Source: Pseudodesulfovibrio nedwellii
GTDB taxonomy: Bacteria; Desulfobacterota; Desulfovibrionia; Desulfovibrionales; Desulfovibrionaceae
Length of the DNA: 64,000 nt
Assembly (NCBI RefSeq): GCF_027923765.1
Contig: NZ_AP026709.1
Location: 2,599,501-2,663,500 of the forward strand
Direction of reading: 5' to 3'
Made by a program: the position numbers and the translations under genes. Positions 35,443 to 61,325 of the stretch are shown here, in pieces; positions within the stretch are counted from its first letter, which is position 1; every line of letters starts with the position of its first letter. Under the pieces are notes generated by a model that searched no databases, was not told where the DNA came from, and was given only the letters and a program-made list of their open reading frames with translations.

Positions 35443-36744
35443 ATGAGCATACAGGACAGAACCAATAAATTTAGTCAGGCATTTAATTCAATTCCGGATC
35501 AGGCTCGGGAACAGGATGGTTTGAAGAAGGCCGCTTTTGCCCTTGGTCAGGGCGAGTATCAGCGTGCCTTGAAGGAACTTGCCTGTTTAGAGAGTGCACC
35601 TGCTCGTATCATGCGGGCAGAATTGTTGTGCGATCAAAAGGAATATGACTTGGCTCGGACTGAGTGCCTGCAAGTAATAGAGCAAGAGCAAAATGCATAT
35701 GGTGCGTATAATTGCCTTGGCCATATTGCTCGTGCAGAAGGAAATATTGACGACTCTCGGCAGGCGTTTCTGGCATCCATTGCGCTTGAGGCCAATGGGC
35801 GTGTCGCTCAAACCAATCTTGTTGGAGAGAACCGTGACTCCGTGACCTCTGATCGGAGCGACGCCAGCATTGTGACAAGCATTCCACCACGAGACGTGGA
35901 GCGGCATTATGCTTCTACTCGCAATTGGGTTGAGGGTGGGTTTGAAGTCATATCGCTTAATACGCAGGCTGAGATTGATCAATTGCAGGGATTGCTTCCG
36001 CATGTGATCTTCGAGAAAGCTCCACGCACGGCTTGTGAAAAGTTTGGTAGGGACTATGTGTACCTTGATGATATTTTGGATGTTTTGGCCGCATGTGGCA
36101 AACGCATAGGCGGTATAGTCAATGCGGACATCCTTTTGCATGGGGCGGCAGACTTGTTGACACAACTACCCCAGGCAACCGACCAAGGGCTGGTGTTTGG
36201 CTCAAGAGTTGATATCGATACAGGCTTGAAACAGTGGCGCAGCTACGATGTGGGATTTGACTATTTTTTCATGAGCCCGGCACTCGCTGCCGAGTTGCCT
36301 CGTCAGACGTCATATTGTCTGGGTTTACCTTGGTGGGATTATTATCTCCCCATGGCAACGGCCAAAAAGGGAGCACATATATTTTTGAATCATACTCCGG
36401 TTGCATATCATGGCGTTCATGCAATTAATTGGTCTCCGCGATTGTTTCATGCGTTGGGGGCGGAGTTTGTACAGGATACGACGGGGCTTTGGTTTGAGGA
36501 CGGGCTTTCGGCTCCTGTGGTTTCGTTTGCGGACATGACGGCTCAAGAACAGTTTTTGGTGGGTGTTGCCAAGTATGTGGTAAGGCGGCTGCGGTTGCTG
36601 GCGAAATCAATTTCTATTGAAACGGACAATTTGACACGCCTTGCTTCTCCGTTGGACTTGAAACGGTATGGCATGGCGAACGAGTTGACTTTGCTTGAAG
36701 GGTTGGAAGGTGTGGTTGAAGGTCTGGGGTTGAAGGGAGCATAG
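35443..36744 (+). CDS. TPR protein fused to an unassigned, glycosyltransferase-like domain
   Basis: 433 residues. Residues about 25-130 form two or three TPR-like helical repeats (ALGQGEYQRALKELACLE, LCDQKEYDLARTECLQVI, YNCLGHIARAEGNIDDSRQAF). Residues about 160-400 form an alpha/beta domain with GGIVNADILLHG and a later LPWWDYYLPMATAKKGAHIFLNHTPVAYHG, resembling a GT-A-like sugar transferase, but I cannot name the family. It is the first gene of the glycan island and may act on the acceptor protein. Confidence 0.5.
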   Translation: MSIQDRTNKFSQAFNSIPDQAREQDGLKKAAFALGQGEYQRALKELACLESAPARIMRAELLCDQKEYDLARTECLQVIEQEQNAYGAYNCLGHIARAEGNIDDSRQAFLASIALEANGRVAQTNLVGENRDSVTSDRSDASIVTSIPPRDVERHYASTRNWVEGGFEVISLNTQAEIDQLQGLLPHVIFEKAPRTACEKFGRDYVYLDDILDVLAACGKRIGGIVNADILLHGAADLLTQLPQATDQGLVFGSRVDIDTGLKQWRSYDVGFDYFFMSPALAAELPRQTSYCLGLPWWDYYLPMATAKKGAHIFLNHTPVAYHGVHAINWSPRLFHALGAEFVQDTTGLWFEDGLSAPVVSFADMTAQEQFLVGVAKYVVRRLRLLAKSISIETDNLTRLASPLDLKRYGMANELTLLEGLEGVVEGLGLKGA

Positions 36745-37065
36745 CAGGTAATTTCATAATTTGAAGTAGATAGATCAATCATCAAGTGAATGAATGGAAA
36801 AGTGGCCGACTCCTGTCAAAATATTGTAGGTATGTAATTTGCATAATTATGCCATGCCGACTGGAAGGTAAGATTCTGCCTATTCAAATATGCTTTTGGA
36901 GAGATGAGATTTTGGGCTTTTGATGTTTGGGCATGAGGCGGTAGGAATTGTTTCTTGACTAAATAAATCGTTCGGTTAACGGTCGATTGTGATGTTATTA
37001 GTATAGGTTGCTGAGTTTGTTGGCGTCCTGTCGATTAATTGATTTTAGTAAATGTGGGTTAGGAA
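36745..37065 (+). other. AT-rich gene-free gap before gmd
   Basis: About 320 bp with no convincing gene or terminator. It contains a CGGTTAACGG-type palindrome near 36973 and weak promoter-like hexamers. A second promoter for the gmd part of the island is plausible but not shown. Confidence 0.35.
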
Positions 37066-38163
37066 ATGGGTAAAAAAGCACTGATTACGGGTATTACTGG
37101 TCAGGACGGATCATATCTCGCCGAGTTGCTCCTGGAAAAAGGGTACGAAGTCCACGGTATTAAACGTAGGGCTTCTTTATTCAATACGGGCCGAGTGGAG
37201 CATCTGTATCAAGATCCGCATGATGAAGAACAAAGGTTTTTCTTGCATTATGGGGACATGACCGACGCGACCAACTTGATTCGTGTGGTGCAGGAAGTTC
37301 AACCTGACGAAGTTTACAATCTGGCGGCCCAGAGTCATGTGGCTGTGTCCTTTGAAACACCGGAATACACGGCAGACACTACTGCAATCGGTCCTTTGCG
37401 CTTACTTGAGGCCATTCGTATTCTCGGATTGGAAAAGAAAACTCGTTTTTATCAGGCTTCGACATCCGAACTGTTTGGCAATTCAGGTAAGGACAAGCAG
37501 AGTGAATTTACCCCGTTTTGTCCGAGGTCGCCTTATGCCGCAGCCAAGTTGTACGCCTACTGGATAACCATCAATTATCGTGAAGCATACGATATGTATG
37601 CCTGTAATGGTATCCTGTTCAATCATGAATCTCCTCGCCGGGGTGAGACGTTTGTGACCCGAAAGATCACTATGGGGTTGGCTCATATTGCAGTCGGCCT
37701 CGATCAGACGTTGTGGCTTGGAAATCTTGATGCTCGGCGAGACTGGGGGCATGCTAGAGACTATGTGGAAATGATGTGGCTTATGCTGCAACAGGACGTG
37801 CCGGAGGACTATGTCATTGCCACGGGCTCAAGTTATTCCGTTCGAGAGTTCGTGGAGATGGCTGGAAATCTGGTGGGCATGGACATTCAATGGCGTGGTT
37901 CAGGGACCGACGAAGTCGGCGTGGACGGCAAAAGTGGGAAGACGGTGATTCGCATCGATCCGCGATATTATCGGCCCACCGAGGTTGATTTTCTGGCTGG
38001 TGAGGCGACCAAGGCCAAGGAACGTCTTGGTTGGGAGCCGAAGATATCCTTTAAGGATATGGTTGCAGAAATGGTTGAATCTGATCTGGAGCAAGCCAAA
38101 CTGGAAGCCTTGTGTAAGGAAAACGGGTTTGAATCTTTTACTGCATGCGGAGTGAAAGAGTGA
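37066..38163 (+). CDS. gmd: GDP-mannose 4,6-dehydratase
   Basis: 365 residues, extended SDR. ITGITGQDGSYLAELLLEKGYEVHGIKRRAS is the cofactor site; the catalytic set includes STSELFG and YAAAKLYAY (YxxxK). It makes GDP-4-keto-6-deoxymannose. The next gene (GDP-fucose synthase) overlaps the stop. Together they supply GDP-fucose or a derived 6-deoxy sugar for the island. Confidence 0.96.
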   Translation: MGKKALITGITGQDGSYLAELLLEKGYEVHGIKRRASLFNTGRVEHLYQDPHDEEQRFFLHYGDMTDATNLIRVVQEVQPDEVYNLAAQSHVAVSFETPEYTADTTAIGPLRLLEAIRILGLEKKTRFYQASTSELFGNSGKDKQSEFTPFCPRSPYAAAKLYAYWITINYREAYDMYACNGILFNHESPRRGETFVTRKITMGLAHIAVGLDQTLWLGNLDARRDWGHARDYVEMMWLMLQQDVPEDYVIATGSSYSVREFVEMAGNLVGMDIQWRGSGTDEVGVDGKSGKTVIRIDPRYYRPTEVDFLAGEATKAKERLGWEPKISFKDMVAEMVESDLEQAKLEALCKENGFESFTACGVKE

Positions 38164-60116: not shown

Positions 60117-60170
60117 GTGTTTAAATTATTGTTGTCGGATAACAGCCATCCAAATGGGGAAAGGTAGTAC

Positions 60171-61325
60171 ATGAAAATAGGAGCCCTTGTTCCCGCTCGC
60201 ATTGGGTCTTGCCGGGTGCCCAAAAAGAACATTCGAAAGTTAATGGGCAAGCCCCTGCTGTTTTGGACGTTGGATGCAATTCTTGAGGCGGATTGTTTTG
60301 ATGATGTCTGCGTTTCCACAGAAAGTGAAATTATAGCCAGTCTTGTGCGGGAATACTACGGTCCTCATCGAGTCCGGATACAAAATCGACCTGAAGAGTT
60401 GGCGACGAACACCGCTCCGATGAAAAATGTTGTCGCGCATTATCTGGAGTCTGTTCCTGATGTGGAATTTTATGGAGTGTTTTTGCCGACATATCCTTTC
60501 CGTCGGTCAGAGAAAATTCAAAACGCCTGTCGTCAATTGCATTCCGGTCATTTGGTGCGTGCTTTGGCGGTGACGGAGACCTCGCGTGCTTCGCGGGATT
60601 TGTATTACCCCGTGAAAGAAGGTGTGAAGCCGTTTTTCAGGCCTCCGGTCGTGTGTCTGCCCTATATGTCGGCATGCTACACCTTTGATCATAGGGATTT
60701 AGCCAATTCCATATGGCGACGCATGGGCTATACGACATTTGAGCGTGTCTTGAAGATTCCGGTCAGCAGAGAAGAGAATATAGATATTGACACGGAAGAC
60801 GATTTTCGCGTTGCGCAGGCGGTGGCTTCCGGGGCGCGTTTTAAAGTGCGCAAAAGTATTATGCACAGGACTTCTATAGGAGACATTTTGCTTCCGGAAG
60901 GAGTTGATGTCACAGCCTTCAGTAACTATCTTGGTGACCGGTTGCCTTCGCCGTCTTCACCTGTTCTTTGCTTAAAAACTTCGGAGAAACCTTCATTCAT
61001 GTATACGATCAGTGATGCCGATTCGCTGGCGTACTTTTGTTCGGATGAAGCCTCTAAAAATTATAGCGCGACCACTGTGATTCGTAAAACCGCAAATAAT
61101 AGTGACCAACCACAACATTATGTGCAAAGTTCATATTATCGGGTTCTTCCGAAGAATGGCGTGTTTAATATTGATACTATGGAACCCCCTCGTTATCATC
61201 CTGGTAACGATGGTCCTTGGCCGACAGACGAGTGTGTGCCCTGGGATAGGGTAATCCATATGGAAGATATGAGAAAACAACCCTTTTATGTGTCACCCGT
61301 CGAACTTGTGACACCTGAAAAATAG
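60171..61325 (+). CDS. Second NeuA-like cytidylyltransferase with long C-terminal extension
   Basis: 384 residues, against about 230 for copy 1. Residues 1-220 are a NeuA-type nucleotidyltransferase: VPARIGSCRVPKKNIRKLMGKPLLFWTLDAI, VCVSTESE, FLPTYPFRRSE, ENIDIDTEDDF. Residues about 230-384 are an unassigned domain (GDILLPEGVDVTAFSNYLGDRLPSPSSP, TECVPWDRVIHM-like tail) that I do not recognise. It is the last gene of the island, after a 54-bp gap. Confidence 0.8.
   Translation: MKIGALVPARIGSCRVPKKNIRKLMGKPLLFWTLDAILEADCFDDVCVSTESEIIASLVREYYGPHRVRIQNRPEELATNTAPMKNVVAHYLESVPDVEFYGVFLPTYPFRRSEKIQNACRQLHSGHLVRALAVTETSRASRDLYYPVKEGVKPFFRPPVVCLPYMSACYTFDHRDLANSIWRRMGYTTFERVLKIPVSREENIDIDTEDDFRVAQAVASGARFKVRKSIMHRTSIGDILLPEGVDVTAFSNYLGDRLPSPSSPVLCLKTSEKPSFMYTISDADSLAYFCSDEASKNYSATTVIRKTANNSDQPQHYVQSSYYRVLPKNGVFNIDTMEPPRYHPGNDGPWPTDECVPWDRVIHMEDMRKQPFYVSPVELVTPEK

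What the first reader, a model, noticed from the sequence alone, without database searches (positions are those of the whole stretch)
35443..61325. Island predicted to make a nonulosonic acid with acetamidino and methyl decoration
NeuB, NeuC and NeuA types, a PtmA-like SDR, a WbpG/PtmG-like amidotransferase, HisF/HisH-like partners and a methyltransferase right after the amidotransferase together resemble loci for Leg5Am-type sugars. The dehydratase, aminotransferase and acetyltransferase of legionaminate synthesis are not in the window. So either those are elsewhere or a sialic-type backbone is decorated. No flippase, polymerase or ABC exporter is seen, which favours flagellin or other cytoplasmic protein glycosylation.
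Basis: partly seen in the sequence, partly recalled or inferred. Interest (0 to 1): 0.7.

Follow-up and report, generated by a model that had tools for sequence, protein, structure and literature searches.

The report
Decorated sialic-acid island with odd NeuB
A bacterium related to sulfate reducers carries a strain-specific 26-kb gene island that probably makes a chemically decorated sialic acid, and inside it sits a conserved, unexplained gene pair whose sugar-making enzyme has lost a residue thought to bind its metal.

Summary
The island is real: window 35106-61391 is missing, as one block, from a same-species genome. Its amidotransferase (WbuX), HisF/HisH types and methyltransferase are confirmed. 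The Leg5Am reading is only partly supported. The genome has a separate legionaminic-type locus at 1.00 Mb with LegB, LegC, LegI, LegG, LegF and its own HisF/HisH/WbuX. The island's epimerase and synthase instead resemble the Neu5Ac route: NeuC matches human GNE better than the diacetylbacillosamine epimerase, and the LegG of the other locus does the reverse. No Wzx/Wzy/ABC family was found among the island proteins. Flagellin as target is not shown: the nearest Maf-like gene lies in a stretch that the island-free genome also has. New: gene 45237 is a distinct NeuB paralogue. All 17 members found have Asp for Ser154 and Pro/Gly for His236; 36 of 36 ordinary NeuB keep both. An APH-fold kinase stands beside it in 15 of 17 loci. 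Published annotation of Legionella LPS ORF9-ORF10 shows the same pair of names, function unsolved.

The parts
35106..61391 (.). strain-specific island; absent in same-species genome G197
   Evidence: blastn of G197 junction against window
35443..36744 (+). TPR-like protein with unknown C-terminal part; 40% over 167 aa to a gene in the G106 island
   Evidence: no Pfam/NCBIfam match. 'TPR-like' is read from the sequence
37066..38163 (+). GDP-mannose 4,6-dehydratase (Gmd)
   Evidence: PF16363 520 bits
38145..39092 (+). GDP-fucose synthase type (Fcl-like) epimerase
   Evidence: PF01370 215 bits; the Fcl name is by position and recall
39107..39931 (+). family 2 glycosyltransferase
   Evidence: PF00535
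39938..40894 (+). SAM methyltransferase
   Evidence: PF13489
40822..41976 (+). glycosyltransferase (Glyco_trans_1_2); true start probably later
   Evidence: PF13524
41963..42952 (+). radical SAM protein 1
   Evidence: PF04055
43058..44095 (+). NeuB-A, ordinary sialate-synthase type; first gene of the 13-gene unit
   Evidence: PF03102 and SAF; best PDB match Neisseria SiaC 369 bits; catalytic positions as in ordinary NeuB
44092..45240 (+). NeuC, hydrolysing 2-epimerase of GNE type
   Evidence: TIGR03568 over cut-off; GNE 287 bits against 209.6
45237..46304 (+). NeuB-B, divergent NeuB paralogue without His236
46288..47343 (+). APH-fold kinase paired with NeuB-B
   Evidence: PF01636 57.4 bits
47353..48531 (+). 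GT-B-like protein following the kinase (called UNK47 here)
   Evidence: no Pfam match; model pLDDT 64.8 matches GT-B structures coarsely
48528..49328 (+). SDR oxidoreductase (36% to the SDR of the Leg locus)
49358..50440 (+). radical SAM/SPASM protein 2
   Evidence: PF04055, PF13186
50452..51678 (+). WbuX N-acetyl sugar amidotransferase
   Evidence: TIGR03573 over cut-off; PDB 8wex 526.8 bits
51639..52415 (+). SAM methyltransferase next to WbuX (MT2)
   Evidence: PF08241; 45% relative beside HisF in G106
52412..53101 (+). CMP-nonulosonate synthetase type (NeuA1)
   Evidence: PF02348; TIGR03584 below cut-off
53109..53870 (+). HisF/WbuZ-type amidation partner
   Evidence: best model WbuZ, below its cut-off
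53834..54505 (+). HisH-type glutaminase
   Evidence: TIGR01855 200.8 bits over cut-off
54524..55522 (+). radical SAM/SPASM protein 3
   Evidence: PF04055, PF13186
55872..57335 (+). protein of unknown family with HPK and S/T stretches shared with UNK47
   Evidence: no Pfam match; weak hhalign probability 51.7%
57339..57950 (+). TylF-type methyltransferase
   Evidence: PF05711
57966..59270 (+). family 4 glycosyltransferase
   Evidence: PF13692
59274..60116 (+). FkbM-type methyltransferase
   Evidence: PF05050
60171..61325 (+). cytidylyltransferase domain with long C-terminal extension (NeuA2)
   Evidence: PF02348 residues 5-124

Best explanation
A horizontally variable 26-kb glycan island makes a CMP-activated nonulosonic acid of the neuraminic (Neu5Ac) kind and decorates it. 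Proposed steps: UDP-GlcNAc to ManNAc by NeuC (44092); ManNAc plus PEP to Neu5Ac by NeuB-A (43058); CMP activation by NeuA1 (52412); replacement of the N-acetyl oxygen by nitrogen, giving an acetamidino group, by WbuX (50452) with ammonia from HisH through HisF; methylation by MT2 (51639). NeuB-B (45237), its kinase (46288) and, here, the GT-B-like protein (47353) form a separate conserved tailoring cassette. I think it most likely that NeuB-B no longer does the metal-aided PEP condensation of NeuB but works on a related, possibly phosphorylated, substrate in a late modification of the sugar (about 0.4 for that step alone). Shown: gene content, island borders, backbone-type comparison, conserved pair, altered residues. 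Inferred: every enzyme activity, the order of steps, the methyl target, and the acceptor (flagellin about 0.4, other surface glycan about 0.45).
For: Backbone: island NeuC 287 bits to GNE against 209.6 to the diacetylbacillosamine epimerase, reversed for the LegG control; NeuB-A 369 bits to SiaC against 167 for LegI; eight of ten fetched loci with a NeuC of 40-44% identity show no LegB/LegC over 150 bits, and the other two have a LegG-type epimerase besides. Redundancy: the Leg locus already has its own WbuX/HisF/HisH (WbuX pair 56% identical). Amidation: TIGR03573 over cut-off; 8wex is a Legionella amidotransferase. Methyl: G106 has a 45% relative beside HisF/HisH/WbuX; in Legionella ORF8 is reported as N-methyltransferase of the acetimidoyl group (passages). 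Cassette: kinase directly after NeuB-B in 9 of 9 clade I loci from four phyla (profile built from 7 of the 9; six relatives also match the window kinase by blastp at 24-29%); GT-B-like protein next in 4 of 9; none of 9 fetched stretches (8 loci) without NeuB-B had such a kinase; NeuB-B is one side of one branch, 100/100; residues. Operon spacing. Empty site.
Against: NeuB-A falls below the TIGR03569 cut-off (349.7 of 399.65) although LegI passes it (474.4); I take that model as not separating the two routes. In 6 of 8 clade I relatives the cassette lies in a locus with LegB and/or LegC over 150 bits on profiles made here (G106, L105, L107, L109, L110's genome, L112), not with a Neu-type set, so the cassette does not require a Neu backbone. 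WbuX is in reach in only 4 of 9 clade I loci, so the cassette need not concern the amidine. Five of 8 clade I loci with both NeuB types in reach show one NeuA of at least 100 bits; three show two or more (L043, L106, and the window counting an 88-bit one), so a second CMP sugar is neither shown nor excluded. Two of 17 NeuB-B loci show no such kinase (L046, L047). No activity was measured.
Confidence: 0.55

Rival explanations
1. The island's amidation, methylation and NeuB-B cassette act on CMP-legionaminic acid made by the separate locus at 1.00 Mb, while NeuB-A and NeuC make plain Neu5Ac.
For: Six of 8 clade I relatives with the cassette carry LegB and/or LegC in the same locus; LegB/LegC exist in this genome; the only PDB match of WbuX is the Legionella enzyme.
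Against: The Leg locus has its own WbuX, HisF and HisH; NeuB-A, NeuC and the cassette overlap in one operon-like unit.
Confidence: 0.22
2. One reading: the island makes Leg5Am(NMe) itself, drawing UDP-diacetylbacillosamine from LegB/LegC at the other locus.
For: Gene set resembles the Campylobacter ptm and Legionella loci (passages; further Campylobacter details recalled).
Against: Epimerase type.
Confidence: 0.08
3. Destination: the sugar goes to a surface polysaccharide or lipid-linked glycan, not flagellin.
For: Gmd/Fcl, three assigned glycosyltransferases and two further HPK-containing proteins lie in the island; the matching cassette names in Legionella belong to the LPS locus; the stretch with the nearby Maf-like gene is also in the island-free genome.
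Against: No Wzx/Wzy/ABC family among the island proteins; an exporter elsewhere in the genome was not sought.
Confidence: 0.45
4. NeuB-B is a catalytically dead partner (scaffold or regulator) of NeuB-A.
For: Loss of His236 and change of Ser154 in 17 of 17; in each of the six genomes searched whole with the profile a lower-scoring NeuB-family match exists besides NeuB-B (in G302 only as two half-matches).
Against: Glu25, Lys53, Lys129, His215 and Glu234 kept in 17 of 17, and a kinase neighbour kept over long distances, argue for chemistry.
Confidence: 0.2
5. NeuB-B with its kinase makes a second ulosonic acid from a phosphorylated sugar, as in the sugar-6-phosphate route (recalled), activated by its own NeuA.
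For: A NeuA lies beside the pair or cassette in L043, L105, L107, L109, L112.
Against: Five of 8 loci show one NeuA for two NeuB types within reach; His236 lost.
Confidence: 0.25

Closest known systems
Legionella pneumophila serogroup 1 LPS locus (ORF8-ORF13)
   Same: Methyltransferase of the acetimidoyl group, NeuB-family ORF9, ORF10 named phosphotransferase, hypothetical ORF11, a radical SAM ORF13-c in some strains, amidotransferase ORF28 (passages of PMC3766260; PMC12308824 Table 2).
   Different: Backbone there is Leg; ABC-transporter genes wzm/wzt are present; whether ORF9 has the NeuB-B residues was not tested, since its sequence was not fetched.
Campylobacter ptm legionaminic flagellin locus
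   Same: PtmG/PtmH-type amidation and N-methylation (described in PMC3766260 passages). The genome's other locus has LegB-LegC-LegI-LegG-PtmE-like-Gfo/Idh-LegF-SDR.
   Different: The window island lacks LegB, LegC and a PtmE type and has a GNE-type NeuC; Campylobacter gene order is recalled.
Neu5Ac route: NeuC/GNE, NeuB/SiaC, NeuA
   Same: NeuC and NeuB-A by ranking against solved structures.
   Different: No amidation or methyl module is part of that route (recalled); an acetamidino neuraminic acid gave no paper.
Ordinary NeuB / PseI / SpsE synthases
   Same: NeuB plus SAF domains; E25, K53, K129, H215, E234 kept.
   Different: His236 to Pro/Gly and Ser154 to Asp in 17 of 17.

Membership tests
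Legionaminic (Leg) biosynthesis locus | LegB dehydratase in the locus | tested here: not met
   none over 150 bits in the window; the only one over cut-off is at C1:1004552
Legionaminic (Leg) biosynthesis locus | LegC aminotransferase in the locus | tested here: not met
Legionaminic (Leg) biosynthesis locus | LegG-type epimerase | tested here: not met
   GNE ranks first; LegG control
Neu5Ac (NeuBCA) route | hydrolysing UDP-GlcNAc 2-epimerase | tested here: met
   sequence only: TIGR03568 over cut-off (also true of LegG) and GNE ranking
Neu5Ac (NeuBCA) route | sialate synthase | tested here: inconclusive
   SiaC best, 369 bits; below TIGR03569 cut-off
Neu5Ac (NeuBCA) route | CMP-Neu5Ac synthetase | tested here: inconclusive
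   PF02348 met; best subfamily model below cut-off
Acetamidino (WbuX/HisF/HisH) module | N-acetyl sugar amidotransferase | tested here: met
   TIGR03573 over cut-off
Acetamidino (WbuX/HisF/HisH) module | HisF- and HisH-type partners beside it | tested here: met
   HisF closest to WbuZ but below its cut-off; HisH over the general HisH cut-off; separate histidine-pathway copies were not sought
PtmH-type N-methyltransferase | methylates the acetimidoyl nitrogen | not testable with these tools
   fold family and position only
NeuB synthase family (for 45237) | NeuB barrel and SAF domain | tested here: met
   PF03102 154.7 bits, PF08666
NeuB synthase family (for 45237) | two metal-binding histidines (roles recalled) | tested here: not met
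   His215 kept, His236 lost
Flagellin glycosylation island | Maf transferase or flagellin genes in the island | tested here: not met
   Maf-like gene 3.4 kb outside; its stretch also in the island-free genome; flagellins at 1.44, 3.00, 3.76 Mb
O-antigen or capsule export locus | Wzx, Wzy or ABC exporter beside it | tested here: not met
   none among the island proteins by family search; flanks by eye

The most novel reading that the evidence does not exclude
NeuB-B with its APH-fold kinase is a new enzyme system: a NeuB-derived barrel that has given up the metal-aided PEP condensation and performs an undescribed tailoring reaction on amidated or other nonulosonic acids, shared by bacteria of at least four phyla and by the unsolved ORF9-ORF10(-ORF11) of the Legionella LPS locus; here it acts on an acetamidino-neuraminic acid, a sugar for which the one search made found no paper.
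Probability: 0.3. Interest if true: 0.75.

Novelty: new variant of a known kind. Interest (0 to 1): 0.52.

Why it matters
Nonulosonic acids coat flagella and surfaces of many bacteria, and products are usually predicted from gene content. This locus would extend amidation and methylation to a neuraminic backbone. The NeuB-B/kinase pair is a ready test case: by family models such a protein looks like a pseudaminate or N-acetylneuraminate synthase, yet every member found lacks a residue recalled as a metal ligand, so product predictions that count it as a synthase may be wrong. It also offers an environmental system in which to study a gene pair whose counterpart by name in Legionella is described as not fully understood.

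Tried and rejected
Leg backbone in the island: rejected as first choice because of the epimerase control and the missing LegB/LegC. TIGR03568/03569 scores as a Neu/Leg discriminator: rejected, since the Leg-locus proteins also pass them. Plasmid hits of NeuB-B (58 records, 30 listed): five were fetched; all five are ordinary NeuB with EKH, and no kinase of this type was found in the three of them tested (L133, L134, L136). The other 53 records were not looked at. Structure of 47353 from its sequence alone failed (pLDDT 40.6); with three sequences it reached 64.8, and the 50 matches listed, 2-epimerases and glycosyltransferases of GT-B fold (fold name recalled), have TM 0.33-0.59 with high rmsd, too coarse to name an enzyme. 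PDB profile search of that protein: nothing. Kinase in the PDB by sequence: nothing. tRNA at the island edge: the only tRNA of the window is at 3089-3164; edges were printed but not searched for repeats. Leptospira paper as a two-NeuB precedent: the passage shown gave nothing useful. Promoter and terminator scans of 42800-56200 gave chance numbers. Rarity of NeuB-B: 1 of 398, 3 of 395 and 1 of 387 genomes at E up to 1e-80, each count including the genome used as centre; 8 of 297 genomes of the order at E up to 1e-40 with the single protein, own genome included. The count of closed sites was first made as 11 of 20 alone; with the coordinates it is 13 of 20.

Full report
Setting. The window is C1:2599501-2663500 of a closed 3.76-Mb genome. 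Its genus appears to be Pseudodesulfovibrio: a same-genus genome (G225) has a contig of 85,492 bases at the hit, the length of the contig of a record of that name.

The observation. The island proteins were translated and scanned. Thirteen genes from NeuB-A (43058) to the third radical SAM gene (55522) are separated by -40 to +29 bases. The island is strain-specific. In G197, labelled same species, window 30165-35105 matches at 96.8% and the next match, 54 bases further on, starts at window 61392. G197 gave no NeuB-B match at E up to 1e-40 and no NeuC match at E up to 1e-60, but it has LegB over the cut-off. Of 20 congeners examined at this site, G197 included, 13 have the two flanking genes less than 250 bases apart, 2 have 1.4-1.5 kb between them, and 5 show no left flank gene within the 5.8-5.9 kb fetched. 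Two further congeners (G132, G184) were not examined.

A second nonulosonic locus. LegB over the family cut-off lies at C1:1004552 and LegC beside it (TIGR04181 497.5 bits over 420). They are followed by LegI, LegG, a CBS-nucleotidyltransferase of PtmE type, a Gfo/Idh protein, LegF, an SDR, HisF, HisH and WbuX. No LegH acetyltransferase was recognised by eye among the frames listed. The PtmE and Gfo/Idh labels are mine, by look of the sequence.

Which backbone. Island NeuC: GNE 287 bits, diacetylbacillosamine epimerase 209.6. Locus LegG: 138.4 and 294.9. Island NeuB-A: SiaC 369. LegI: SiaC 167 (its best match is SpsE, 199.9). Among 297 genomes of the order, NeuC relatives at E up to 1e-60 fall into two groups: 11 rows of 40-45% identity with E at most 1.9e-94, and rows of at most 39% with E at least 1.3e-73. 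Of ten loci of the first group that were fetched, eight have no LegB/LegC over 150 bits in the stretch, and the two that have them (G161, G164) also have a LegG-type epimerase. I read this as a Neu5Ac-type backbone; it is sequence evidence only.

Decoration. WbuX is over its cut-off and its one solved relative, 8wex, is a Legionella amidotransferase. The methyltransferase 51639 overlaps it. In G106 a 45% relative stands beside HisF, HisH and WbuX. In Legionella the methyltransferase ORF8 is reported to N-methylate the acetimidoyl group (passages of PMC3766260). Whether MT2 does so is inference.

The unflagged part: NeuB-B and its kinase. The gene 45237 is a NeuB-family protein with at most 42% identity to any relative found. 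One scan of named genomes gave 9 loci out of 47 pattern matches, with titles naming Verrucomicrobia/Spartobacteria, Rokuibacteriota, Proteobacteria with Magnetospirillum and Rhodospirillaceae, Omnitrophota and Pseudodesulfovibrio. Of 53 distinct NeuB-family sequences from the loci that I gave the script, 17 score best on a NeuB-B profile and 36 on an ordinary one, both profiles built from members (63 before removal of duplicates; matches covering under 250 profile positions were dropped; two ordinary rows lack their start). At the positions of Neisseria NeuB, read off the alignment, NeuB-B has Asp for Ser154 in 17 of 17 and Pro (9) or Gly (8) for His236; ordinary ones have Ser and His in 36 of 36. 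Tyr186 is kept in 36 of 36 ordinary and 2 of 17 NeuB-B. Glu25, Lys53, Lys129, His215 and Glu234 are kept in all NeuB-B. The roles of these residues are recalled; PMC7371886 (section 7 read) describes the area around PEP and C1 as conserved in its three NeuB types, but it does not discuss Ser154 or His236 there, and its residue numbers may not all coincide with mine. A tree of 51 rows of 290 residues or more puts NeuB-B on one side of one branch, 100/100, and has a nine-member clade with the window protein, 100/100.

The pair. In that nine-member clade (clade I) an APH-fold kinase follows directly in 9 of 9, and the GT-B-like protein follows it in 4 of 9: window, G106, L108, L110. The kinase profile was built from seven of the nine and the GT-B-like profile from those four, so the profiles are partly circular; blastp against the window proteins independently gives 24-29% for six kinases and 24-26% for three GT-B-like relatives. 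In the other eight, a kinase stands near in six (four tested and over the Pfam APH cut-off; two by a profile made here) and was not found in two (L046, L047), which also score closest to ordinary NeuB. Nine fetched stretches of nonulosonic loci without NeuB-B (L023 and L024 are one locus) had no such kinase. Within the nine aligned kinases the usual catalytic Asp (motif recalled) is Asp only in the window; it is Glu in seven and Gln in one. WbuX lies within reach in 4 of the 9 clade I loci (window, G106, L106, L110 with L156), so the pair is a feature of nonulosonic loci rather than of amidation alone.

Link to published work. PMC12308824 (passages) lists in the Legionella pneumophila Paris LPS operon lpp0833 (ORF9) as N-acetylneuraminate synthase family protein, lpp0832 (ORF10) as phosphotransferase and lpp0831 (ORF11) as hypothetical, and calls the function of lpp0833 not fully understood. 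PMC3766260 (passages) places the ORF8 methyltransferase beside it, names a radical SAM ORF13-c in some strains, and reports loss of an antibody epitope on disruption of ORF8 or ORF11. I tested no sequence of these ORFs, so the match rests on names and order. Searches for print on the pair or on an acetamidino neuraminic acid listed nothing that by title describes either (open-licence library only; the papers listed were not opened for this).

Destination. Three strong flagellin genes exist among six matches. Two proteins match PF01973, the Maf-like domain; one starts 788 bases beyond the window end and scores only 22.5 bits on the PseD model, cut-off 670. Since the aligned stretch that covers it is also in G197, it is not part of the island. 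No exporter family was found among the island proteins; the rest of the genome was not searched for one. I leave flagellin and another glycan about even.

Assessment. A nonulosonic island of mixed, modular content is ordinary in kind. The Neu-type backbone with an amidation module, and above all the altered NeuB with its kinase, make it a new variant. The chemistry of that pair is the open question.

Noticed in passing
C1:1004531-1015084 (L023:12532 to L024:3085): Separate legionaminic-type locus with its own HisF/HisH/WbuX; LegB is also in the same-species genome G197.
   Followed up: partly
window 61392 to C1:2667743: Right flank (regulator, reductase, Maf-like gene, NadE) is only 68-72% identical to G197, while the left flank is 97%: the island may have come with its right flank, or G197 is mosaic.
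   Followed up: partly
window 46288-47343 and alignment A4: Kinases beside NeuB-B have Glu or Gln in place of the usual catalytic Asp (motif recalled) in 8 of 9; the window copy keeps Asp.
   Followed up: no
window 41963-42952, 49358-50440, 54524-55522: Three radical SAM proteins (two with SPASM) in one sugar island, role unknown; radical SAM genes also stand in other NeuB-B loci such as L044, L045, L049, L113.
   Followed up: no
window 60171-61325: Cytidylyltransferase domain of about 120-135 aa matched, followed by an extension without any family match.
   Followed up: no
window 1773-3164: Integrase-like gene (1773-2921, by eye) beside tRNA-Phe (3089-3164): perhaps the edge of another mobile element.
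   Followed up: no
L116, L118, L119 (G161, G164): Congeners that carry a Leg-type and a Neu-type set side by side.
   Followed up: partly
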